The position numbers were made by a program, and so were the translations under genes. Positions 11,518 to 50,059 of a DNA stretch of 64,000 nucleotides are shown piece by piece (the first letter of the stretch is position 1; each line of letters opens with the position of its first letter). The notes beneath the pieces were generated by a model. The model ran no database searches and was not told the DNA's origin. It was given only the letters and a program-made list of their open reading frames with translations. This DNA is from Ilex aquifolium (lineage: Eukaryota > Streptophyta > Magnoliopsida > Aquifoliales > Aquifoliaceae): NCBI GenBank assembly GCA_951799425.1, contig OX637393.1, positions 9,432,244 through 9,496,243 on the forward strand, read 5' to 3'.

Positions 11518-11759
11518 TCCTAGTTTTTTTTGCAACGAGGTAGTTCAAATGATTCAATTTTCTGTTAATATCTTACTGCCTCAAGTTTGATTTCACAAAA
11601 AATGTACTTACTAAGCAAATGCACAAAATTTATGGCTTGTGAGCATGGCATGAAATTAGATGGTTTAATTTTTTTATTAAGTCACCCATTTTATAAACTA
11701 GTAGACCTGATACAACACGATTAATAAATCAATCGGTTATGGATGGAGACAATCAAAAG

Positions 11760-12232
11760 TGATGATGCACAAATTGATTTGCACACCACAGTCAAGCAAT
11801 TGTATAAAATGTAGTAAAATAAGTAGAGAAAGAGAAGCCAAGATTTATAGTGGTTCGGTCAACGTGACCTATGTCCACTTTGAATGGCAAGGGTTGGCGG
11901 TATTTTATTAATTCCGATGTGTAGGGAGAGCGGAGAGTTACAAGCTTAGAGAGGAAAAAAAGAGATTTGCCTGAATGAGTGTGTTGCCCCCCAAGTGTTG
12001 GTGGGGCTTACATTTTATAGTAGTCGCCTCATAATGGGTATTAACTTAGTAGCTGATCCAGCAGTCACAACGGAGCGGGAGTTAAATGGCTTGGCGACCT
12101 CTCCTCTTCTCAACGGGCAAGAGAGTTAAGGTGCACTCCAAAGGACTCGGTCAATAGATGAGGGAAAATTGACTCTCTCCAAGCAGCGAGGGTAAGGCTC
12201 CTGAATGCTCCCTTGGTGGCGTAGCTCCCTGA
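11760..12232 (-). repeat. Left end repeat of the Gypsy element (inverted copy)
   Basis: This segment is the reverse complement of most of the right LTR, from the CATCA terminus inward. Matching landmarks include the CACACCACAGTCAAG block and the GTCGCCTCATAATGGG block. In an ordinary LTR element both LTRs run in the same direction, so this orientation is unexpected. Confidence 0.85.
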
Positions 12233-12239
12233 AGCGCCC

Positions 12240-13240
12240 ACCGAAGAGCATGCCTGAGTTACTGGCGAAGGCCCAGAAATACATGAATGCTGAGGACATC
12301 ACAAGGGCCAGACCAGGTGAGTCTTCCAGAGCTGGGGAGAAAAGAAAAGAGAAAGACAGGGACGACAAAAAGGAGAGTAATAACAAGCGCAACAGAACTG
12401 AGAGGGTACCTGCTAAAGACCGGCTCGGTCCTGCTCCCCAAAGAGATCGACAAGCCTTCACTCCCCTCAGTACCTCTGTCGGGCACATCCTATTACAGAT
12501 TCAGGATGACCCCGCAGTAAAGTGGCCAGGAAGAATGAAGTCTCCCCCAAATCGTAGGAACCCAAACAAATATTGTCGCTTTCATCGTGACCATGGTCAC
12601 GACACCGACGACTGCTATGACCTCAAAAGACAGATTGAGGAGCTCATCCAACGGGGTCACCTACGCCAATATGTTGCCGATAGAGAACGGATACCAGCCC
12701 CACCTCGTAATCAGGAAGACCAACAACCCATCGGGGAAATTCACACCATCTCCGGAGGGCTTGCAGGGGGAGGAGAATCCCTCTCCGCTATGAAGGCTCA
12801 TGCTAGGAAAGCTAGGCACCCTGACGAATTGCACCCATCTAAGGCGTCAAAGCATGGCAACAGCGAGGTCATATCTTTCTTAGACAAAGATTTGGAAGAA
12901 ATCCAGCACCCCCATGATGATCCCTTGGTGCTCACCATGACCGTCGCCAACTTCCAAGTGCGGAGAATTCTCGTGGACAGCGGCAGCTCTGCGGATATCT
13001 TGTTCGCAGAGGCTTATGACAAGCTTAACTTGGGTAGGGAGAGACTGCAGCCTATCAGGTCGCCCCTCATTGGGTTCTCCGGGGAGAAGGTATATCCCCT
13101 AGGGTCCATCACCTTACCAGTCACTGCCGGCACAGCGCCCCGAAGCTCCACGATCATGGTTAATTTCCTGGTGATAGATTGTCCTTCAGCGTACAACATC
13201 ATTCTAGGGTGACCTGCTCTCAACACTCTAAGAGCGGTGC
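12240..13240 (+). pseudogene. Gag (zinc knuckle) and protease region of the Gypsy fossil
   Basis: The gag-like start includes LAKAQKYMNAED. A zinc-knuckle-like motif follows, YCRFHRDHGHDTDDCYDLK, a form typical of Tat-lineage elements, and then the aspartic protease signature VDSGSSADILF. It is a fossil and is described by parts only. Confidence 0.85.
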
Positions 13241-13249
13241 CCTCTACCT

Positions 13250-14960
13250 ACCACCTCATTCTCCGCTTTCCAACCCTGAGCGGAGTCGGAGAGATCCGGG
13301 GGGATCAAGTAGCTGCAAGAGAGTGCTACGTCTCCTCTATGAAGGCAAGGAAGCCACATGAGGCACTGCAAGTGGAGGTCCTCGACCTAAGGGATGACGT
13401 CACTATCGAGAGAGGAGAACCAGTCGAGGAGCTCACCCCAGTGACCTTGGATGTGGAGTATCTAGACAGAAGAGTGTACATTGGCTCTTCCTTTTCTGAA
13501 GACTTGGTCCGCCAGCTCGTAGACTTTTTAAAACGTAACATGGACGTTTTTGCATGGTCACATGCGGACCTGGAGGGCATCGACCCTGAGGTCGCCACCC
13601 ACCGCCTCAATGTCGACCCTCACCATAAGCCTATTCGTCAAAAACTAAGGGGTGCCTCCACTGAAAGGGCCCAAGCAATGGAAAAAGAGGTGGGAAAGTT
13701 GATAGAGAACGGAGCGGTCAAGGAAGTAGCCTATCCTGAGTGGCTCTCAAATGTGGTGATGGTGACTAAAGCTAATGGGAAGTGGCACCTCTGCGTCGAC
13801 TTTACTGAGCTCAACAAGGCATGCCTGAAGGATAGCTACCCACTACCACGAATCGACCTCCTCATCGACGCGATAATAGGACTTGAATTGCTCACCTTCT
13901 TGGATGCATATTCTAGGTATAACCAGATTAGCATGCACCCCTCAGACCAGGAGAAGACATCGTTCATCACTCCAAGAGGGACCTACTGCTATAGGGTCAC
14001 GCCCTTCGGGTTGAAGAACGCATGAGCCACTTATCAACGACTAGTGAATAAGATGTTCCAGTCACAGATTGGGAAAACAGTGGAGGTGTATGTGGACGAC
14101 ATGCTAGTAAAGAGTCTCGCAGCAGCAGATCATATTGACCACCTCCAAGAAACTTTTAACGTTCTCAGGTCATACCACATGAAGTTGAACCCTGAGAAGT
14201 GCGTCTTTGGTGTAGGCTCAGGGAAGTTCCTTGGCTTTATGGTCAACCAGAGAGGAATTGAGGCGAACCCCGACAAAATCAAGGCAATCTTAGATATGAA
14301 GTCGCCGTCCTCAACCAAGGAGCTCCAGCGCTTAAATGGGAGAATTGTAGCACTCAATAGGTTCGTTTCCAAGTCTGCGGACAAATGTTTGCCTTTCTTA
14401 AAAATTCTCTGAAAAACCTTCGAGTGGAGACCTGAAGCGGAGGAAGCCTTCCAAAATCTTAAAGCCTACTTGGCTACACTTCCACTCTTTTCACACGCCG
14501 AATCTGGTGAAACTTTATATCTATACCTTTCTGCTTCCCCATCGGCAGTGAGCTCCGTCCTCATCAGAAACAATGACGGGGTACAAAAGCCAATTTATTA
14601 TGTGAGCAGAGCATACCGGGGAGCGGAAGTCAGATATTCAGAGCTAGAAAAATTAGCACTTGCCATCATTTCAACAGCAAGACGTCTGTGACACTACTTT
14701 TAGAGTCACACTGTTGTTGTAATCACAGATCAGCCTCTAAAAAGAGTCTTGGGAAAACCAGATGTATCCGGAAGACTCCTAAAATGGGTAGTGGAACTAG
14801 GCGAGTTCGATATCCAGTACCAACCAAGGGCGGCTATCAAAGCACAAGCCTTGGCGGATTTTGTTGCTGAGCTTACACCCGTAGAGGAGGTCAATGGACA
14901 TTTCACGCTTCAGACATTGAGACTGGACACCCAAAGCAAGGTGATACCTAACAAGGGCAC
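13250..14960 (+). pseudogene. Reverse transcriptase and RNase H region of the Gypsy fossil
   Basis: Reverse transcriptase landmarks are WLSNVVMVTKANGKWHLCVD, then LDAYSRYNQI, and the catalytic VYVDDMLVK. An RNase H portion with SRAYRGAEVRYSELEK follows. Gypsy order (reverse transcriptase before integrase) is clear. The region is broken. Confidence 0.85.
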
Positions 14961-15335
14961 CTAGGCGCCCAGTCCGGGCGCCCAGACCTCCTTCCTGGGC
15001 GCCCAGACTTCCTCTTCAGGTGCCTAGACACTCCTAGGCGTCCAGAACTCCTTCCCGGGCGCCCAGACCTCCCCTCATGGCGCCCAGACCTCCCCTCATA
15101 GCGCCCCAGATCTCCCCTCCTGGTGCCCAGACTTCCTCTTTAGGCGCCCAGGCACTCTTAAGCTCCCAGACCTCCTCCCCGGGCGCCTAGACTTCCTCCT
15201 TAGGTGCTCAGCCACTCCCAGGCGCTCAGCCTGGCACCCAGGCCTGGTGCCCAGGTCCCTCCTGGCGCCCAGGCTGGAGCCTTGCTAGCCCACCCAGGCT
15301 TCCTGACTCCCGCAGTGCTCTCCGAACTCTCATCT
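14955..15335. repeat. GC-rich tandem repeat built on GGCGCCCAGAC(C/T)TCC
   Basis: Roughly fifteen degenerate copies of a 15-30 bp unit based on GGCGCCCAG followed by ACCTCC or ACTTCC. It sits between the first RNase H and the second RNase H of the Gypsy fossil. The same GGCGCCCA/CTCGCCCA vocabulary returns at 19480-20110 and near 20755-20810 on the other side of the element. Confidence 0.85.
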
Positions 15336-15349
15336 TCGCTACTCTAGAA

Positions 15350-15855
15350 GTTTTACGTGGATGGATCTTCAACCAGTGAAGGAGGTGGAGCTGGCTTAAT
15401 CCTGATCAACCCCGATGGCACTCCCATCAAGTACGCTGTGAAGCTCCACTTCATCGCCTCCAACAATGAGGCAGAATACGAGGCCCTCCTCTCTAGACTA
15501 AGATTGACAATTGAAATGGAGGCTCAACACCTCGTCACTCACAACGACTCTCAGCTAATATTCAACCAAGTAAATGGCGAGTTCAAAGCAAAGGGAACCA
15601 GAATGCAGGAGTACCTCGCCATGGTGAAAACCTTGGTCGCCAAGTTCCAAAACTTTCAAATCACCCACATCCCAAGGGAGGAGAACATGGCCGTTGATGC
15701 GCTAGTCAGACTCGCCTCATCCTCAGAAGCCCCACCAGGACCAACATTCATGGGTCACCAGTTCGAACCAAGCAAGTTGGACGCGAAAGCTACAAGTGTC
15801 AACTGTGCATCTGCTGAGGCAAACTGGATGACCCCAATAAAAACATACCTCTAGG
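15350..15855 (+). pseudogene. Second (archaeal-type) RNase H of the Gypsy fossil
   Basis: The block opens with YVDGSSTSEGGGAGLIL, continues with NNEAEYEALL and ends around HIPREENMAVDAL, the arrangement of the additional RNase H found in Tat-lineage elements. It is separated from the first RNase H by the GC-rich tandem repeat. Confidence 0.85.
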
Positions 15856-15859
15856 AAGG

Positions 15860-17060
15860 TGCATTGCCTGATGACCCTCTGGAAGCCAGGAAGCTCAAGA
15901 TGAAAGCCTCCAAGTTTACTATTTTACAAGATACTCTGTACAAAAAAGGCTACTCCCTGCCGTTATTGCGGTGCCTTTCGCCTGAAGAAGCCGATTATGC
16001 CCTGCGGGAGATCCATGAAGGGATTTGTGGGAATCATTCTGGAGAGCGATCACTCGCCCACAAAGTGCTCAGACAAGGCTACTTCTGGCCTAGAATGATA
16101 AGGGACGCCCAGGAATTTGCCAAGAAGTGTGATAAATGTCAGCGCTTCGCCACTGTGCCCAGACAACCGCCAGAAGAGCTCACAGTCGTCACAAGTCCAT
16201 GACCCTTCTCCAAATGGGGCATCAACATCCTAGGCCTCCTACCTATCAGCAAAGGACAGTGCAAGTTCGTGGTGGTAGTGGTGGACTACTTCACTAAATG
16301 GGCGGAGACAGAACCCTTAGCAAAAATAACAGACGTAAAGGTGAAAGATTTCATCTGGAGAAACCTGGTCTGTCGCTTTGGGATACCCCACGCCATTGTC
16401 AGCGACAATGCCAAGCAGTTCGACAACAAGCTCCTGAACTCCTTCTGCTCCGACCTTCAAATAAAACAACCACATTCTAGCCCGGCGCACCTGCAGGCAA
16501 ACGGGCAGGCAGAGGTCATGGTGAGAACGGTGTTGCGCAACCTCAAGACAAGGCTCGAAAAGGCAAAAGGTCTTTGGGTCGACGAGCTCCCAGGCATATT
16601 ATGGGCCTATCGGACCACACCAAGAACTCCAACCAGAGAAACCCCCTTCTCCCTCACCTTTGGAACTGAGGCAATCATTCCTGTGGAGATCGTGGTGCAT
16701 TCTCTAAGGGTTCAACACCACGACCCTGTCACCAATGAGGAAAGACTCCGCATCAACCTCTACTTGATAGAGGAGGCAAGGGAGATGGCTGTGGTCCGCA
16801 ACGCAGAGTACAAGCGTCGCATGAAAAAATACTACAACACAAGGGTGAAGCCTCGTTCCTTCCAACCAAGAGATTTGGTCCTTAAGAAAGTGATCCTCGC
16901 TACAAAGGATTCACGAGAAGGAAAGTTGGGACCGAACTGGGAAGGACCCTACCTCATAACAGAAGTGGTGAGGCCGGGCACCTACAAGATACAGAGTTCT
17001 GAGGGAAAAGTTTTTCCCCATCCGTGGAATGCCGAACACTTGAAAAGGTACTACCAGTGA
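15860..17060 (+). pseudogene. Integrase region of the Gypsy fossil
   Basis: An H2C2 zinc-binding block (HEGICGNHSGERSLAHK ... CDKCQRF) precedes the catalytic core, which starts VVVVDYFTKWAETEPL and continues VSDNAKQFDN. The C-terminal part ends in a GPY-like segment LGPNWEGPYLITEV. The parts are easily recognised; the element as a whole is broken. Confidence 0.85.
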
Positions 17061-17299
17061 CACCTTGAGAGAGTCAAAGTAGAAAGGTTGGAGACTTTAT
17101 TTTATTTTTTGTACTTTTTTGGGGCTATTACTCGATATTGCTTTACATAAGCAGTGAAGTAAATAAAACAAAATTTCTAGATTTACTCAAAAGATCTTTG
17201 CATTTTTGTATTCAACTTCAAAAGAGCATCAGTGGCAAAAATCAACCACTTTCACAAAAAGTAGGGCTACAATATGCTTTTCTAAAAAAAAAAATATAA

Positions 17300-19560
17300 A
17301 ATCAAAAATCAAAAAGTCCCTAGCACTTTAACTACTCTCATGGTCGTCATCCTCCTCCTCGTCATCACCCTCGGCATCCTCAGAACCTCCATCACTCTCA
17401 TCAGGCGCCTCAGTTGCCACGAAGCCTGAGACATCAATATCGGGGTAGGCAGCATAAATCTTTCCCCGGAGCTCCTCATAGCCATCAATGAAAGCATCAG
17501 CAATACCATCCCTCAGGTCCGCCTCAGCCCGGGAAGCTTTTTCCTGAGCAGCCTTCACCTCTGCCTCTGCGGCAGCCTCTCTGAGCATGGCTCTCTCGCG
17601 GGTCTCCGCAAGCTCAGCCTCGAGCTTGGCTGCCCTCTCATGGGTCGCCGAAAACTCAACCTCTCTGAGCATGACCCTCTCGCGGGTCTCTGCAAGCTCA
17701 GCCTCACTGAGCGTGGCCCTCTCACGGACCTCAACAAGCTCAGCCTCGAGCGTGGCCGCCCTCCCATGGGTCACCGAAAGCTCAACCTCATTGAGCGTGG
17801 CCCTCTCACGGACCTCAACAAGCTCAGCCTTGAGCCTGGCCATCTTCCCATGGCTCGCCGAAAGCTCAGCCTCAAAACCAGTCGCTCTCTCATCAGAAGC
17901 CCTTCCAGCAGCTTCAAGCTCCACGATCCTCCCCTGAACAACTAGAAGTTCATTTTGCACAGCTTCATGGGTGTGCTTCAGCTGGTGAAACATGAGGGTC
18001 CTTGAAAACATACACATAGATGCAACCGAGGCTTGAGGAAAAACAAAAGGCGAAAATATGTTAGAAATGTGTGAAAGGAAGGGAGAAAAGGGAGATAATA
18101 AACCCTTACCTGAGCCCAGCTTTCCAAAAAAGAGTTGAGGATTCCATCGGTGCCCGTGGAACTAAGCTCGTTCACATCCCTGGCACACACAAATTTCCCA
18201 AACCGATCTCTGATGACCCGCATGTTACCCAGCATAGAGATACTCTGGGAAGGCGCCCTAGAAGAAGTTCCCACAGGAGTGAATGAAGGGGGGGGGGCAG
18301 AAGATGAGGCCAGCAGGGGAAACTCCGGAGTAGGAGATGCAACTGAGGGAGTAGGCACCTCTGGAGGAGCCACTGGTCCAAAGGGCGCCCTAGGTACCGC
18401 TAGAGGGGCTGATTGAGAAGAGCTCCCCTCGGGCGGTACCATTGGAGAGGTTACTTGGGAGACCTGGCTCGCCCTCACCATCTCAGGCACCCTCGTCACC
18501 TTGGGAGGAGGAGGACTCCTACCAGAGAGGCAAGACCCAATCGCCTCCCTATCTATTGCTGCAAAGAAATAAAGTGTTACCCAGATGAAAAAACATCAAG
18601 TAAAGAGGGATGGTACAAAATAATCAACTCACCCTTCCTCTTCAAAGAGGAGCCGCCAGACTTCGGGGTAGCACGAACTCCGGACATAAGGACTCCAAAA
18701 TCCTTTTCAGGATAATCCCTCACCGCTTGCAGTTTCCATTCTTGGTCCTTCGGAAACACAGGAGGATATGCAAAAGGAATGATGAAAAAAATAATAATAA
18801 AAAAAATGAAAAATGAAAAGAGCAAAAGAGCAAAAGAGAGAAAGCAAGTGTGAGGCTTACCAAGTTCTTTGGGGGTACCCCATCCTCTTGGTACCAAAGT
18901 CCTATCGGCCTCTGTAGCCCACTCTCCGCCAACAAATAAAAAGCAGCATTTCCAACTATGACAATTGGACCGCAGTCCAGTGATCAGCCTGCCTCTCGTA
19001 GTAAAGTAATACCAACCCCGATTGGGAGCGGGGGTCTCACTCAAAGTATAAACTCCATGAAACTCCTCCGGAGTGGCATCCTCACGGTGCACTTTTCTAC
19101 ACAACACCAAAAAATATAGCAAAACCCTCCATCCATTGGGTGACAGCCGCCCCGGGGTGAGTGAAAAATATTCAAGGATGCAACAGATAGAAGGGGACAT
19201 GGGAAACCTGAGCCCAACCTCAAGCATCTCCTCATAGATGACAATATCTCCGGAAGAGTCATCCGAGGCGGGCTCACCCATCTCAGCCCGACGACATAGC
19301 ACAGTCGGAGGAATATGGTAGGTGGAGACAATCCGCAAAATATCATCGGAATTTAAAGTATTGGAGAGGGTATTTACCTTGGACCCGTCGTCAACTATTT
19401 TGCTTTTGTACTTTTTCTTACGGAGGCCCTGAAGAGTTTGATCTTGAGTAATTACATTCGGAGGGGCTGGATCATCACCAATACAAGTGCCAGGCCCGCC
19501 ACAGGCACCCAGGGCAGCCCCAGCCTCGCCAAAATTCCTCAAATTAGCGCCCAAAAAGGC
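17300..19560 (-). pseudogene. Antisense block of the Gypsy fossil with a PF04195-like domain
   Basis: Minus-strand frames between integrase and the right LTR. The upstream one (about 19550-18580) carries the domain known as putative gypsy-type transposon (PF04195): VIYEEMLEVGLRFP, LSPNGWRVLLYFLVL and GWYYFTTRGRLITGL. Downstream are a Pro/Ser-rich segment (about 18500-17980) and an Ala/Glu-rich predicted coiled coil with repeats of about 20 residues (about 18000-17330), ending in an acidic tail. Antisense ORFs in this position are known from Tat-lineage elements such as Grande. Their function is unknown. Confidence 0.75.
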
Positions 19561-20110
19561 GCCCCGCTGCTCATCTAGCGAGCTGCCCCGCGCGCCTGCA
19601 CCACCATTGGCGCCTCAACACCGACAACACCTCCAATCGGCGCCACAAGGAGAGGCGGCTCCATCCGTGGGTGCCTAGCAGTCCAAGATTCCTCACCGTG
19701 CGCGCCCATCATAGGGGCAGCTTGCCCAATGGACTGGGCTTCTCGCCCACCTTGCTCGCCCACTCCATAGACAGCTCGCCCAACAACACCGGACCCGTCC
19801 CAGGCATGGGCGCCCAAAGCACAAGCTGACCGCCCCTCTTCCTCGCGCGCCAAAGCTGCTCGCCTAGGCTTGTCGTCGCCCAGGCAGTCCGCGCGCCCAG
19901 GCAGACCGCGCGCCTAGACAGCTCGCCCAAGCAGTCCAGATTTGCTCATTTGGCGCCCAGATCAGCACCTTGCTCACCCAAAACAGCCTGCTCATCACCC
20001 AGCTCACCATGCTCGCCCCATATGGCCTGAATAAGCCCCAAAATGGGCACCTAACACCTCTTTCTCGCACACAACAGGTGCGCGCCCAGCAGCGCCCAAT
20101 GGCGCCTCCA
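19480..20110. repeat. GC-rich segment with GGCGCCCA and CTCGCCCA words
   Basis: Interspersed copies of GCGCCCA and GCTCGCCCA at irregular spacing lie upstream of the antisense block. They share vocabulary with the tandem repeat at 14955-15335. Confidence 0.65.
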
Positions 20111-21077
20111 CTCCACCGCTATGGCCACCTTCTCCCAAGCTCCCTCGTCGGTCAATAATGGCTCCTCCTTCTTCGACAATAGTGGGTATTTGTTCTCCTC
20201 TTTCCTCAATCGACATGGCCTCCAAATTCTCAAACTCAAGAATGTCAAGTCTTGGGTCCCCAAAGAATTTTTAGAAGAGTTCACCTTCACACTCGCAAGT
20301 TTCTATGGAGTGGGTGGAGTTTGGGCTCTCAAGAGTTTCAAGAAGAAGTTCAATCCCAAAGTGAATGAATGGGCAAGAATGAAGGAAGCTTTCTATTTAT
20401 ACCTAGGGTTCTTCAAATCCTATTGAAGGAAGAAGCAAAAAGGCCCAATTCCAAAACCAAGGGCTCTTCAAGAATGGAAAAGGGGGAGTAAAGTTAGGAA
20501 TTTATATAGCTAATGGAGTTCTACAGACAAGAGGCCAAAGAGAAAATCGCCAATCAAAAGGGATTTCCTAAAAAAAAAAAAAAAATTGGATTTAAAAAGG
20601 GCTATTTTGACAGTAACTCCAAATGGGACGTATAATATGTCAAAATCGAAGCTCTCGATGAGCCGAGCAAAACTCATTTTCGTTGGCAATGAGCTTTTCA
20701 AAAAAAGGTCAAAAAAAGCCTAGAAAAAAAAATATATATATATTTTAAGCTGCTCGCCTAGGACGCCGCCTACTCGCCCAGAAACTGGTTGCTCGCCCAA
20801 AACCGTGCCCCAGCTCTCTGCTCGCAATTTTAACCGTAATTTTTGCTCCGTTATTCCAAATGGGGCCCATAATATATCAAATCAAAACTCTCGGCGAGCC
20901 CTACAAGACTCACACCCTTTGGCTGTGAATGATGCTGTCAAAAGTCCAAAAGAGGCCAAGAAACAGATGTTTTGACCTACCGAAGTTTGTCCAGTTATGC
21001 CGGTCAGCAAAAAATTCAAACTCAAATTGAATGCCCTCATTTCCAAGTTCCTTATATGCAGGGCATTGAGGGGCAAA
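20111..21077. other. 3' non-coding part of the Gypsy fossil
   Basis: No recognised domain. The phrase CCAAATGGGACGTATAATATGTCAAAATCGAAGCTCTCGA-like occurs twice (about 20618-20660 and 20855-20893), an internal direct repeat. A purine-rich GAGGGGCAAA lies just before the right LTR and could be the polypurine tract. Confidence 0.55.
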
Positions 21078-21654
21078 TGATGAGTCAGACCCAATTCATG
21101 TGGAAATCCCAAACTTAATTAAAGAGCTCAAGCTCATAGAAGACCCAGCAAGCCCTATGAGGTCCAAGTCAGTCGAGCCCATCAGGGAGCTACGCCACCA
21201 AGGGAGTATCCAGGAGTCTTACCCTCGCCGTTTGGAGAGAGTCAACTTTCCCTCATCTATTGACCGAGTTCTTTGGAGTGCACTTTAACTCTCTTGCCCG
21301 TTAAGAAGAGGAGAAGTCGCCAAGCCATTTAACTCCCGCTCCGTTGTGACCGCTGGATCAGCTACTAAGTTAATACCCATTATGAGGCGACTACTATAAA
21401 ATGTAAGCCCCACCAACACTTGGGGGGCAACACACTCATTCAAGAAAATCTCTCTTCTCCCTCTCTAAGTTTGTAACTCTCTGTTCTCCCTACACATCGG
21501 AGTTAATAAAATACCGGCAACCCTTGCCATTCAAAGTGGACGTAGGTCACATTGACCGAACCACTATAAATCTTGTCTTATCTTTCTCTACTTATTTTAC
21601 TACATTTTATACAATTACTTGACTGTGGTGTGCAAATCAATTTGCGCATCATCA
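21078..21654 (+). repeat. Right LTR of the Gypsy element
   Basis: It starts TGATGAGTCAG after a purine-rich tract and ends GCGCATCATCA before the AAAAG duplication, 577 bp in all. A TATA-like CTATAAAATG lies near 21392. It runs in the same direction as the plus-strand coding region. Confidence 0.85.
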
Positions 21655-21659
21655 AAAAG

Positions 21660-21835
21660 AAATACAAAACATGACTCGTTTATATACTATTTATATATAA
21701 TTCATACATGATACTCGTTAGACAAGAATTAATAAACGAATTGGTTTTAATGGAGTATTTTTTTACACGAACCCGCTAAAATTCAACACAAACCCGTCTC
21801 ACTCGACACGATTAAGAGACCTAAAATTGTGTACA
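21660..21835. repeat. Dispersed repeat split by the Gypsy insertion
   Basis: This segment and its left partner (about 11700-11754) together resemble 33868-34115. Shared words include CACGATTAATAAA, TTAGACAAGAATTAATAAACGAATT (compare TTAGATACGAATTAATAAAC) and the GACACGATT-like end. The Gypsy element therefore landed inside an older copy of this family. Confidence 0.65.
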
Positions 21836-42100: not shown

Positions 42101-43889
42101 TCATAGCAGCCCCCTCCTTAATCTAGTTATCCATCCCTCTTTAGGATTTCAATCTAGTGATCAAAGGTCATTATCCAGTTTAATCTCAGTTTTAGGAAGG
42201 GTGAATTGTGTACTGCTCATCATGGTTCAAGGTCGCGATATTGGCTATCGACTTGAAGAGCTCTGAGACACATCGATCACGGTGCGGTATCGGGCGATAC
42301 GAAAAAAAAAATGTTGAACATGACGAAAAATTTAGGTCATATCGAGGCGTCGTGAAACCGTATCAACCAATTCGGTGACGATATTTCGGCGACTCGAGAT
42401 TGACTCGAATACAACTCGGACGACTCGGCCAAGTTGTGCGAGATTCGGGGTTTATATATATCGTGTAACGGTATCGTCTCCGAAAGTGTCGAGACGGATA
42501 CGATTCGGCCGACTTGTATCGGTATCGGGCGATACTTTGAACCATGCTACTCATGGTTCAAAGTATTAGCCGATACTGATATGAGTTGGTTGAGTCATAT
42601 CCGACTCGACACTTTCGGAGACGATACCGTTACATGATATGTACAAATTCCGAGTCTCGCACAACTCGGCCGAGTCGTCTGAGTTGTATCCAAACCAATT
42701 CCGAGTCGGCGAAATATTGTCACCGAATCAGCCGATACAATTATAGCATATGCATTGCATTATATACCCAAAGTGGCTGCCCTTAAATTTGGATCCATAA
42801 CTGTTAATCTGAGCACTTAATCAGTGCTAGGCAATGAACCCCATTTCGCCATGGTGAAAGGAAGATTTCACCAAACATTTTCTCTTCCAATTAAATTAAA
42901 ACCACTAATTGAAATTCTACAAGCAATTTAAAAAAAGGTATTATAGCATATTGCCAATAGAGAAATAAATACATATAAGCACATATGAGTATAAGGTTAT
43001 CTATCTACATATAATAAATAATTTAGAGGTGAGAGAGCTTGAAAATTATTCCCTCCCCATTTTCTAATTTTCATAGAATTTAAATTTTTTTAATTCAAAA
43101 CTTAAGACTTCCTCCAATCATGGACACTATCACGTCTCATTTGTAACAACTCTTCAACTTCTTCATAACTAACCAAGCTAGTTTATTAATAAAAGGGTTA
43201 ATCTCAAATTACACATTGAAAAGATCTTTTGAACCTCAATTTGCACTCTCAAAGATAAAAAAATTTAATTTGTACTCTCAAAATTAGAAATCTGTATCAA
43301 TAATACTCACGTCAAGCTAACAGTGGTCAGTTTGTCTTTTAAAATTAAATGAATAAATTACACCTAAACCCCTCATACTTGGCACTTAATCACCTAGACC
43401 TCATATTTGAAATATTACACTTACATTCCTCTAGAATCCAAATATGACTAAAACATTTTCCCCAATTGGGCATCCAAATAATTAAATAATGTATTATATT
43501 TGATATAAAGAAACATTATATAAATACTTTCATTATATTGGGCATTTAAATAATAAACTTGATTTTAAACTTTAGAGTACAATTGAGTCACAAAATAAAG
43601 GGTAGTATGAAAATTATAATTTTTTATTAAGATGAAATTATATTTTTTAACAACGACCCTTTACATGTGCACAACCGTCATGAGGTGTAAGAATAATATT
43701 CTATGAGGGGTATAAATGACTAAGTGACAAGCATGAGACACAAACTGGCGGTAGGTAGTTTCAGGTGTGCATTAATATAAATTTTTATTTTTGAGTGTGT
43801 AAATTGAGATTCAAAAGATCTTCTAAGGTACAATTTGCGATTAACTCTTAATAAAATCACTTAATTTACCAAGAAACAAAATGACAAAT

Positions 43890-46555: not shown

Positions 46556-47879
46556 AAGTTAAAGGGGAGAGTCTATGGTACCGCAAACCACTTTTCGGTA
46601 CGGTACCGAAGTGGTTTGTGGTGGGCCATGGTGAAAAAAAAAATGACGGCTAAAAAAACAGTGGTAACCTTACCTTAATATGTGGTAACGGCGGCTGAAA
46701 AACGGTGATAAATTCACCTTAAGATGTAGTAACCTCATCTCACATCTAGGTGGTATTTTTACCTTTATTACTTGTAACTTAACCTTAAATGGTTATAACT
46801 TAACATTAAAGGTAGTCATGATCGATCATGATTAATTAAAGATCGATCCCAATGCCAATTTTTTTTTTGTCATTCCACTCAATTAAGATCTATCATGATT
46901 ATTTAGGATCTATCACAATGCCAAATTTTTTTTTTTTTTTGCTATTCCACTCAATTAAGATCTATCATGATTATCTAGGATCTATCCCAATGCCAAATTT
47001 TTTTATTTTTTTTTGTGATTCTAATCATTTAAGATCGATCCCAATGCCAAATTATTTTTTTTACATTAAATTGACATGTAATTTTATGTTAATTTTATGA
47101 ATTTTAAATTTGTAATTTTGAATGCTAATTTAATACAATTGAATGTTATTTTTGATGAATTGAGTGTTAGTTGGATAAAATAAAAAATTAAAAATAACAT
47201 CAATTTTTAAATTAACATAAAATTAAATTAATTTTAATTTTATGAATTTTTTTTTTTGTAATTTTATGAAATTAATTTTTAATTTTATCCAAATTAACAT
47301 TCAAAATTATAAATTTAAAATTCGTAAAATTAACATTAATTCATAAAATGTTAATTAATTTTATGAAATTACATGTCAATTTAATGTAACTAAATATAGG
47401 ATCGGGACCAGTTCAAGAAAAAAAAAATTCGGCTTGTTGTGATCGATCCTATTTAATTGGAATCACAAGAAATTTAGTTTGGTCCCAATTTTTGGACCAT
47501 CAAATGCATTAAGATCGATTTCATATAGTCATGATCGATTCTAATTGAGTGAAATCACAAAAAAAAATAATAATAATAATTTGGATCGATCATTATTATG
47601 TATGATCGATCCCAATTTCCTCATTCCCCCCATAGGCAAGATGCTCCCCCCCCCCAAGTAAGGTTGTAACAAAAAAAAAATTGATCGATCATGTTAATGT
47701 AGGATCGATCTTAATTATCATTAGTCTGTATGATGGATCCCAATTTCCACATTCCCCCAAAGGCAAGACAACCCCCCCTCCCAGTAAGGTTGTAACATAA
47801 GTACAAGCAAAAAGAAAAAAACAAAATTTAGATCGATTATGTAAATGTTCGATTGATCTTATTTATCATAAAATTTAAA

Positions 47880-48075
47880 ATTATGAATTTTAATTTTAAT
47901 TTTAATTTTATGAATTTTAATTTAATGTTAATTTAATGAATTTTATTTTAATGTTAATTTATGAATTTTAAATTTAATTTTATGAATTTTAATTTTATTT
48001 TAATTTTATGAATTTTAATTTTATTTTAATTTTGTGAATTTTAATTTAATTTTAATTTTATGAATTTTAATTTAA
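47880..48075. repeat. TATGAATTTTAATTTTAATT tandem repeat
   Basis: Simple AT-rich units of about 20-40 bp (TATGAATTTTAATTTAATT variants) lie at the inner edge of the foldback element's left arm. Confidence 0.7.
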
Positions 48076-48089
48076 GGTGAGGTACATAC

Positions 48090-48410
48090 CCTTAAAGGTT
48101 TAGGTTACAACAATTAAAGGTTAGGTAAGGTTATAACAATTAAAAGTAAAATTACTATTTTTGAAAGTGATGTTATAACTCTTAAAGGTTAGGTTACAAC
48201 AATTAAAAGTTAGGTATTAAAGGTTAGGTAAGGTTACAACAATTAAAAGTAAAATTATTATCTTTGAAAGTGGAGTTATAACTCTTAAAGGTTAGGTTAC
48301 AACAATTAAAGGTTAGGTATTAAAAGTTAGGTAAGGTTACAACAATTAAAAGTAAAATTACTATCTTTGAAAGTGGAGTTATAACTCTTAAAGGTTAGGT
48401 TACTACCTTT
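48090..48410. repeat. Three tandem units of about 110 bp in the foldback spacer
   Basis: Each unit contains GGTTAGGTAAGGTTACAACA, AAAAGTAAAATTA(C/T)TAT, GAAAGTGGAGTTATAACTC and TTAAAGGTTAGGTTAC. The units differ by only a few bases, so the amplification is recent relative to the arms. Confidence 0.75.
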
Positions 48411-50059
48411 GGATGTGAAGTTATAACTATTTAAAGTTAAGTTACAAGTAATAAAAGTAAAAGTATCATCTAGATGTGAGATGAGGTTACTATATCTTAA
48501 GGTGGATTTACCACCGTTTTTCAGCCGCCGTTACCACATATTAAGGTAAAGTTACCACCGTTTTCTCGGCCGTCGTTTTTTTTCTTCACCATGGCCCACC
48601 ACAAAACCACCATAGCCCACCACAAACCACTTATGTTACAACCTTACTGGGAGGAGGGGGGGGTCGTCTTGCCTTTGGGGGAATGGGGAAATTGGGATCC
48701 ATCATACAAACTAATGATAATTAAGATCGATCCTACATTAACATGATCGATCAAATTTTTTTTTTGTTACAACCTTACTGGGGGGGGAGCATCTTGCCTA
48801 TGGGGGAATGAGGAAATTGGGATCGATCATACATAAGAATGATCGATCCAAATTATTATTATTTTTTTTTTTTGTGATTTCACTCAATTAGGATCGATCA
48901 TGACTATATGAAATCAATCTTAATGCATTTGATGGTCCAAAAATTGGGATCAAACTAAATTTCTTGTGGTTCCAATTAAATAGGATCGATCACCACTAGC
49001 CGAATTTTTTTTTTCCTGAACTGGTCCCGATCCTATATTTAGTTACATTAAATTGACATGTAATTTCATAAAATTAATTAACATTTTATGAATTAATGTT
49101 AATTTTATGAATTTTAAATTAATGTTAATTTTATGAATTTTATATTTATAATTTTGGATGTTAATTTGAATAAAATTAAAAATTAATTTCATAAAATTAC
49201 AAAAAAAAAAATTCATAAAATTAAAATTAATTTAATTTTAATTTTAATTTAAAAATTAATGTTATTTTTAATTTTTTATTTTATCCAACTAACACTCAAT
49301 TCATCAAAAATAACATTAAATTGACATTCAATTGTATTAAATTAGCATTCAAAATTACAAATTTAAAATTCATAAAATTAACATAACATTACATGTCAAT
49401 TTAATGTAAAAAAAATAATTTGGCATTGGGATCGATCTTAAATGAGTAAAATCACAAAAAAAAAAAAAAAATAATTTGGCATTGGGATAGATCCTAGATA
49501 ATCATGATAGATCTTAATTGAGTGGAATAGCAAAAAAAAAAAAAATTTGGCATTGTGATAGATCCTAAATAATCATGATAGATCTTAATTGAGTGGAATG
49601 ACAAAAAAAAAATTGGCATTGGGATCGATTTTTAATTAATCATGATCGATCATGACTATTAAATGTAACGTTACTACTTGCAAAGACAAAGTTACTACAT
49701 TTGAAAGTGAGGTTATAACTATTTAGGTAAAGTTACAACAATTAAAAGTAAAATTACAATCTTTGAAAGTTAGGTTACTACCTTTAGATGTGAAGTTATA
49801 ACCATTTAAGGTTAAGTTACAAGTAATAAAGGTAAAAGTACCACCTAGATGTGAGATGAGGTTACTACATCTTAAGGTGAATTTACCACCGTTTTTCAGC
49901 CGCCGTTATCACATATTAAGGTAAGGTTACCACTGTTTTTTTAGCCGCCATTTTTTTTTTCACCATGGCCCACCACAAAACCACCATGGCCCACCACAAA
50001 CCACTTCGGTACCGTACCGAAAAGTGGTTTGCGGTACCATAGACTCTCCCAAGTTAAAG

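What the first reader, a model, noticed from the sequence alone, without database searches (positions are those of the whole stretch)
11760..21654. Gypsy element with oppositely oriented end repeats but an intact target duplication
The left end repeat is the reverse complement of most of the right LTR, yet AAAAG flanks the whole unit exactly and both edges read TGATG...CATCA. A simple later rearrangement of one end would have to preserve the outer edge and the duplication. Possible routes are inversion between LTRs of the element, strand switching during cDNA synthesis followed by normal integration, or recombination between two copies. The direct signal is the pair of inverted repeats plus the duplication; the mechanism is inference.
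Basis: partly seen in the sequence, partly recalled or inferred. Interest (0 to 1): 0.7.

Follow-up and report, generated by a model that had tools for sequence, protein, structure and literature searches.

The report
Retrotransposon insertion with two U5 ends
A plant retrotransposon copy carries its two end repeats facing opposite ways instead of the same way, yet it entered the chromosome as one clean insertion, which suggests that a miscopied DNA intermediate with two like ends was still accepted by the normal integration machinery.

Summary
11760-12232 is the reverse complement of 473 nt of the 577-nt right LTR (21078-21654), 94.3% identical. AAAAG flanks the unit (11755-11759, 21655-21659). 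Both outer edges are U5 ends. The normal 5' LTR, primer-binding site and about 1 kb of leader and gag are absent; the left arm meets gag with a 3-nt TGA overlap.

New evidence: (i) the element sits in an older repeat; in 16 of 16 paralogues inspected (of 38 found) the flanks are continuous, 7 with a single AAAAG at the point, so this is one clean insertion. (ii) The arms are sisters in a 22-row LTR tree (98/95), with 13 changes assigned to each. (iii) The junction occurs once in the genome at up to 3 mismatches; 11 of 11 relatives inspected have a same-direction 5' LTR. (iv) Of 189 U5 ends matching one pattern, only this pair faces outward within 25 kb.

Best explanation: a DNA-templated strand switch during reverse transcription made a cDNA with two U5 ends, which integrase inserted. 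Joining of cDNA pieces or a later two-step switch is not excluded. New variant of a known kind; probably a dead end.

The parts
11755..11759 (.). Left copy of the target duplication, AAAAG
   Evidence: Sequence; single copy in continuous paralogous sites
11760..12232 (-). Left arm: reversed 3' part of the LTR (U5, R, part of U3), outer edge = U5 terminus
   Evidence: 94.3% identical to 21182-21654 over 473 nt; edge compared; division into U3/R/U5 is inferred from a TATA-like motif
12230..12232 (.). TGA overlap at the LTR/gag junction
   Evidence: Aligned strings of window, 11 relatives and right LTR
12230..13212 (+). 3' part of gag and following open frame; 5' gag, leader and primer-binding site absent
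   Evidence: 39 other copies match from 12230 on; 11 of 11 inspected have 977-1082 bp more between the 5' LTR and this point; no Pfam match, label from position and recalled motif
13237..14412 (+). Reverse transcriptase, in two open pieces
   Evidence: PF00078 in 13237-14025 and in 14044-14412, searched apart
15357..15854 (+). RNase H
   Evidence: PF13456
16269..17060 (+). Integrase core
   Evidence: PF00665, 33.1 bits, just over the curated cut-off of 32.6
18577..19554 (-). Antisense ORF, PF04195 putative gypsy type transposon
21068..21077 (+). Polypurine-like tract GAGGGGCAAA before the right LTR
   Evidence: Sequence; role inferred from position
21078..21654 (+). Right LTR, complete, 577 nt
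   Evidence: Start and end as in relatives (TGATG...CATCATCA)
21655..21659 (.). Right copy of the target duplication, AAAAG

Best explanation
It is a single insertion of an aberrant Ty3/gypsy cDNA in which both ends are U5 ends. During reverse transcription a growing minus strand left its RNA template and continued on minus-strand DNA. Two equivalent readings exist: it stopped in gag and its 3' end re-primed with 3 nt (TCA/TGA) on the U3 part of a minus-strand LTR, its own or that of a sister cDNA; or it stopped in U3 and re-primed on the gag part of another minus strand. Either way synthesis ran to the 5' end of the template, which is the tRNA-primed U5 end. The product is a linear cDNA reading U5'-R'-U3'(part) / gag-pol-PPT / U3-R-U5, without 5' LTR, primer-binding site and 5' gag. 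Integrase processed both U5 ends and inserted it with a normal 5-bp duplication. Both LTR promoters now point outward, so no full-length sense RNA should start in it. Shown: anatomy, single clean insertion, common origin of the arms, unique junction. Inferred: the strand switch, its direction, completion of the second strand, and integrase acting on two U5 ends.
For: U5 termini at both outer edges. AAAAG on both sides; 16 of 16 inspected paralogous sites continuous, 7 of 16 with a single AAAAG there, 14 of 16 without net length change, so no target DNA was lost. Arms are sisters in a 22-row LTR tree (98/95), 94.3% identical; by the majority base of 20 other LTRs 13 differences fall on the left arm, 13 on the right, 1 ambiguous. 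Divergence lies within the range of five normal LTR pairs, 92.8-98.3%. The junction has a 3-nt overlap and no filler. The junction 27-mer occurs once at up to 3 mismatches. 11 of 11 relatives inspected have the LTR in the direction of gag. The closest precedent uses the same logic of duplication plus like outer LTRs (PMC1950507).
Against: No reads were available. A 3-nt overlap arises by chance in about 5% of joins. It is a single case: no second U5-outward pair was found among 189 ends, and one outward pair within 25 kb is not very rare as a count alone (0.27 expected under random placement). The arms are less alike than four of the five normal pairs compared, and the next LTR (L032) is not far off at 91.1 and 92.1% over 405 columns. 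A full duplex of such a cDNA needs an unproven priming step at the left end. A post-insertion two-step event would leave the same sequence.
Confidence: 0.58

Rival explanations
1. Two cDNA pieces of the family (an LTR piece with a U5 end, and a gag-to-U5 piece) were joined by microhomology end joining before integration; integrase then inserted the U5-U5 molecule.
For: Gives the same molecule, with a short overlap and no filler, one clean insertion and a unique junction.
Against: Needs two broken cDNAs of nearly the same sequence in the orientation that leaves both U5 ends outside; the arms are sisters, which a single cDNA explains more simply.
Confidence: 0.17
2. The copy inserted normally and was rearranged later: a replication fork switched at the terminal TGATGA of the 5' LTR to the reversed U5 end of the 3' LTR, copied 473 nt and switched back into gag; or the 5' LTR inverted on its terminal repeats and a deletion then removed its inner side, the primer-binding site and 5' gag.
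For: The U3 start (TGATGAGTC) and the reversed U5 end (TGATGATGC) share TGATGA, which could guide a switch exactly at the edge; the inner junction has 3 nt; the target duplication would be kept.
Against: Needs two events, one of them at the exact terminal base pairs. No other case was seen among 189 ends, though that search would see only U5-outward pairs.
Confidence: 0.16
3. Assembly artefact: a collapsed or misjoined repeat produced the reversed left end.
For: LTR families are repeated (590 U5 ends at up to 3 mismatches) and no reads could be checked.
Against: The arms differ at 27 positions, so the left arm is not a duplicated string; the left flank runs into a reversed U5 end exactly at the target duplication, and the two flanks together match continuous sites elsewhere. 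Two errors, one exactly at the edge, would be needed.
Confidence: 0.06
4. Two independent insertions in opposite directions, later fused by a deletion.
For: Solo LTRs and opposite pairs exist; 0.27 outward pairs within 25 kb are expected by chance.
Against: Would need a chance match of the outer 5-mers (p about 0.002), continuous flanks in paralogues and arms that happen to be sisters.
Confidence: 0.03

Closest known systems
Template-switching complexes of LTR retrotransposons in Triticeae, rice and maize (Sabot and Schulman 2007, PMC1950507; abstract and the whole main section read)
   Same: An abnormal cDNA made during reverse transcription, inserted once by integrase, recognised by a 5-bp target duplication and like outer LTRs
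   Different: Those have three same-direction LTRs and two internal regions, with a switch between RNAs at R. Here there are two opposed LTRs, one internal region, a loss of 5' LTR, primer-binding site and 5' gag, and the switch must use DNA of the same polarity as template
Autointegration (deletion and inversion circles) of retroviruses and Ty1 (PMC2644782, passages; PMC12786077, passages)
   Same: Aberrant retroelement DNA forms that arise before chromosomal integration, inversion forms among them
   Different: Products are circles made by attack of CA ends on internal DNA; here a linear insertion, and the inner junction lies inside U3, not at an LTR end
DIRS-1-type retrotransposons with inverted LTRs (PMC5633606, passages)
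   Same: Inverted LTRs around a reverse transcriptase gene
   Different: DIRS-1 encodes a tyrosine recombinase and uses circular intermediates; this element has an integrase core, a target duplication, and relatives with same-direction LTRs
Solo LTRs and ordinary LTR-LTR recombinants
   Same: Derived forms that seem to be present in the same family (L037, L039, L041 look like solo LTRs)
   Different: These keep one direction and lose the interior (established knowledge)

Membership tests
Ty3/gypsy LTR retrotransposon | Reverse transcriptase, RNase H, then integrase, in that order | tested here: met
   PF00078, PF13456, PF00665 at 13237-14412, 15357-15854, 16269-17060; the integrase match is just over its cut-off
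Ty3/gypsy LTR retrotransposon | Short (here 5-bp) target-site duplication | tested here: met
   AAAAG on both sides; continuous paralogous sites
Ty3/gypsy LTR retrotransposon | Direct LTRs, with a primer-binding site after the 5' LTR | tested here: not met
   This copy has an inverted left arm and no primer-binding site. Of 11 relatives inspected, 11 have a same-direction 5' LTR, followed by GTTTGGCGCC in 9 and a version with 1-2 changes in 2. So it belongs by descent, not by its end structure
Reverse-transcription template-switch insertion (Sabot and Schulman type) | Single integration with a target duplication | tested here: met
Reverse-transcription template-switch insertion (Sabot and Schulman type) | Outer LTRs more alike to each other than to other copies | tested here: met
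   Sisters at 98/95 among 22 rows, all 20 others taken from the top hits
Reverse-transcription template-switch insertion (Sabot and Schulman type) | Third, internal LTR shared by two same-direction cores | tested here: not met
   Two LTR arms only, inverted
DIRS-like element | Inverted terminal repeats as a family trait; tyrosine recombinase instead of integrase | tested here: not met
   Integrase core present, and no recombinase among the Pfam matches of the 8 ORF pieces tested; relatives have same-direction LTRs
Autointegration product | LTR terminus (CA end) joined to internal element sequence | tested here: not met
   The inner junction lies 104 nt inside the LTR
Product of aberrant reverse transcription | U5-U5 linear cDNA present in virus-like particles | not testable with these tools
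   Needs cDNA sequencing

The most novel reading that the evidence does not exclude
U5-U5 cDNAs are a regular, overlooked by-product of LTR-retrotransposon reverse transcription. Because every minus strand has a U5 5' end, DNA-templated self- or sister-priming yields two U5 ends (never two U3 ends), and integrase accepts U5-U5 pairs. Such copies would be missed by finders that require direct LTRs, and they would place two outward promoters at the insertion site.
Probability: 0.3. Interest if true: 0.6.

Novelty: new variant of a known kind. Interest (0 to 1): 0.42.

Why it matters
If the reading is right, it is a natural record of an aberrant reverse-transcription product that still integrated, and of an integrase joining two U5 ends instead of one U3 and one U5. 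It gives a simple signature (inverted LTRs, both U5 ends outward, shared duplication, truncated 5' side, short overlap at the inner junction) that can be counted in any genome, and it predicts that U5-U5 copies exist and U3-U3 copies do not. LTR finders that look for direct repeats would miss it. For the host it is probably inert, apart from two outward-facing LTR promoters (inference).

Tried and rejected
Inversion by recombination between the element's own LTRs: rejected, because direct repeats do not invert. Two independent insertions: made unlikely by the continuous empty sites and the arm tree. Autointegration: rejected because the inner junction is not at an LTR end. A propagating lineage with the same left end: not found, since the junction 27-mer occurs once at up to 3 mismatches. 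A DIRS-like element: rejected on integrase, target duplication and relatives.

Search for more cases: U5 ends followed by A (127 counted; 100 listed; all 127 listed together, 34 + 93) or by C/T (62 of 62 listed). Only the window pair faces outward within 25 kb. The pattern allows no mismatch beyond its ambiguity codes, and ends followed by G (the base that begins the primer-binding side in normal 5' LTRs) are left out, so diverged copies and some true cases are missed. A looser pattern counted 590 ends, of which only the first 100 were listed. The one opposite-direction inward cluster (C5, three ends) was looked at: the bases after the U5 ends differ between the two directions, and the two same-direction ends look like a tandem duplicate.

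A lead that led nowhere: both parental breakpoints lie at CATCA-like sequence, the pentamer that ends the LTR (21180-21184; gag of relatives reads GATGATGAAGCG or GGTGATGAAGCG). This is post hoc and I draw nothing from it.

In one search one printed line ('R_LTR rc upstream of pt') used coordinates two bases off (21180-21182) and printed ATG; the TGA overlap is read from the aligned strings of the same call and, and corresponds to 21182-21184. In one search the LTR start was set at 21090, too far inside; it was corrected to 21078 for the window copy, but the 20 other rows kept the starts, which lie at or inside the part aligned to 21090-21654.

Literature: ten searches (hits 0, 9, 15, 570, 1, 67, 0, 2, 4, 60, of which at most 20 each were listed). 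In these listings and in the passages read I saw no report of an inverted-LTR (U5-U5) chromosomal insertion with target duplication. This covers only open-licence PMC papers and exact words; prior reports, above all older retrovirus work, may well exist. Papers opened: PMC1950507 (abstract and whole main section), PMC2151762, PMC3187697, PMC5633606, PMC8786324, PMC2644782, PMC12786077, PMC5668417 (passages only).

Full report
What is there. The window lies at G000:C3:9432244-9496243 of an 800-Mb assembly of 103 contigs. At 11760-21654 is one Ty3/gypsy element. Reverse transcriptase (in two open pieces), RNase H and integrase core matches follow in that order, with an antisense ORF carrying PF04195 downstream (the integrase match is just over its cut-off). 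The right LTR is complete, 21078-21654 (577 nt), preceded by a purine tract. The left end is not a 5' LTR. It is 473 nt of reversed LTR (11760-12232, against 21182-21654, 94.3%), joined directly to gag. Pfam gave no match for the gag piece, so that label rests on position, DNA identity to relatives and a recalled motif.

The junction. The junction region (150 bases) had 40 scored genome hits, out of 1022 first-look candidates; one is the window itself and the 39 others match only the gag side, from 12230 on. LTR identity ends at 12232. The overlap is TGA, with no added bases. An overlap of three or more occurs by chance in about 5% of random LTR/internal joins, so it fits a switch but does not prove one. 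In the 11 relatives whose upstream side I inspected (L010-L020, the best 11 of the 39), the LTR has the same direction as gag and ends 977-1082 bp upstream of the homologous point. It is followed by a primer-binding-like tract, GTTTGGCGCC in 9 and a version with one or two changes in 2. The window copy lacks all of that. A 27-base junction probe occurs once in the genome with up to 3 mismatches.

One clean insertion. AAAAG flanks the unit exactly. The flanks belong to an older repeat. A probe of the two joined flanks gave 40 scored places (of 1459 candidates): the two window flanks themselves and 38 others, whose matches all run across the insertion point, at 72-78% identity. I inspected the best 16 of these 38. 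All 16 are continuous; 14 of 16 have no net length change across the point, one has one base less and one has one more; the five bases at the point are AAAAG in 7, AGAAG in 5, AAAAA in 3 and AAAAT in 1. This supports the duplication independently and indicates that no host DNA was lost. LTRs of the family that look like solo LTRs have the same edges and flanking bases consistent with 5-bp duplications, although only 3-4 of the 5 left-hand bases were printed (L037, L038, L039, L041).

Common origin of the arms. Among 22 LTR rows (20 loci, all chosen from the 40 hits with the left arm, plus the two arms) the arms are sisters (98/95; one clade in 98% of 200 bootstrap trees). They differ at 27 of 473 positions; by the majority base of the other 20 LTRs, 13 changes fall on the left arm, 13 on the right and 1 is ambiguous. 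Some of these bases also occur in a few other copies, so 'assigned' is the right word, not 'private'. Five normal LTR pairs are 92.8-98.3% identical; the arms are less alike than four of the five. The nearest other LTR, L032, is 91.1 and 92.1% identical to the arms over 405 columns. So the arms were one sequence at a time comparable with the insertion ages of normal copies, and then diverged separately. At a commonly used plant rate (recalled, 1.3e-8 per site per year) 5.7% would be about 2 million years.

How often. Of 189 U5 ends matching an exact ambiguity pattern and followed by A, C or T, only the window pair faces outward within 25 kb. Random placement alone would give 0.27 such pairs, so the count is no evidence by itself; it only says that further cases are not common among the copies this pattern can see. 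By eye, the seven other LTR pairs within 20 kb among the 40 hits are all same-direction.

Mechanism. Both outer edges are U5 termini. The end that every minus-strand cDNA shares is its 5' end, which is U5 (established knowledge of reverse transcription). A growing strand that switches onto minus-strand DNA and runs to its 5' end therefore gains a second U5 terminus. One such switch explains the inverted arm, the exact outer edge, the missing 5' LTR, primer-binding site and 5' gag, the short overlap, the like arms and the normal duplication. Whether the switch was within one cDNA or between two, and whether it began in gag or in U3, cannot be told. Completion of the second strand at the left end would need priming there; a copied primer-tRNA stretch could provide it, but that is speculation. 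Microhomology joining of two cDNA pieces before integration gives the same molecule. A later two-step replication switch using the TGATGA shared by the two LTR termini could also mimic it, but needs a coincidence at the terminal base pairs.

Consequence. Both LTR promoters point outward (TATAAAA at 21395-21401 in the right LTR; motif recognised from general knowledge), so the copy should not make a full-length sense RNA. This agrees with the single occurrence of the junction.

Comparison. The nearest published case that I found is the three-LTR, same-direction template-switch complexes of grasses (PMC1950507, abstract and whole main section read). The diagnostic logic is the same; the geometry and the template differ. 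DIRS elements and autointegration circles are superficially alike but fail defining features. I saw no printed case with this geometry in the listings of ten searches of open-licence papers, which is weak evidence of absence.

Verdict. It is a new variant of a known kind, of moderate interest, resting on a single case without reads.

Noticed in passing
window 14955-15271: Repeats of the type GGGCGCCCAGACCTCC fill part of the gap between the reverse transcriptase and RNase H pieces of the element.
   Followed up: no
window 17328-19554 (- strand): Three antisense ORFs downstream of integrase; one matches PF04195, the other two had no Pfam match; 42-nt-spaced repeats lie at 17573-17908.
   Followed up: partly
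window 46565-50050: A series of 13 inverted-repeat pairs (81-100% complementary, 8 of 13 at 94% or more) outlines a large foldback with arms of roughly 1.2-1.4 kb; possibly a foldback or long-TIR element.
   Followed up: no
window 42360-42738: Inverted repeat with arms of 187 nt, 83% complementary, only 5 nt apart.
   Followed up: no
window 11600-11759 and 21660-21800: Host repeat into which the element inserted; at least 38 other copies, 72-78% identical.
   Followed up: partly
window 12230-12232 and 21180-21184: Both parental breakpoints lie at CATCA/TGATGA-like sequence, the pentamer that also ends the LTR; post hoc.
   Followed up: partly
L060 (C5:37525300-37528200): Two U5 ends 1368 bp apart with the same following bases, apparently a tandem duplicate of an LTR with its flank.
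   Followed up: partly
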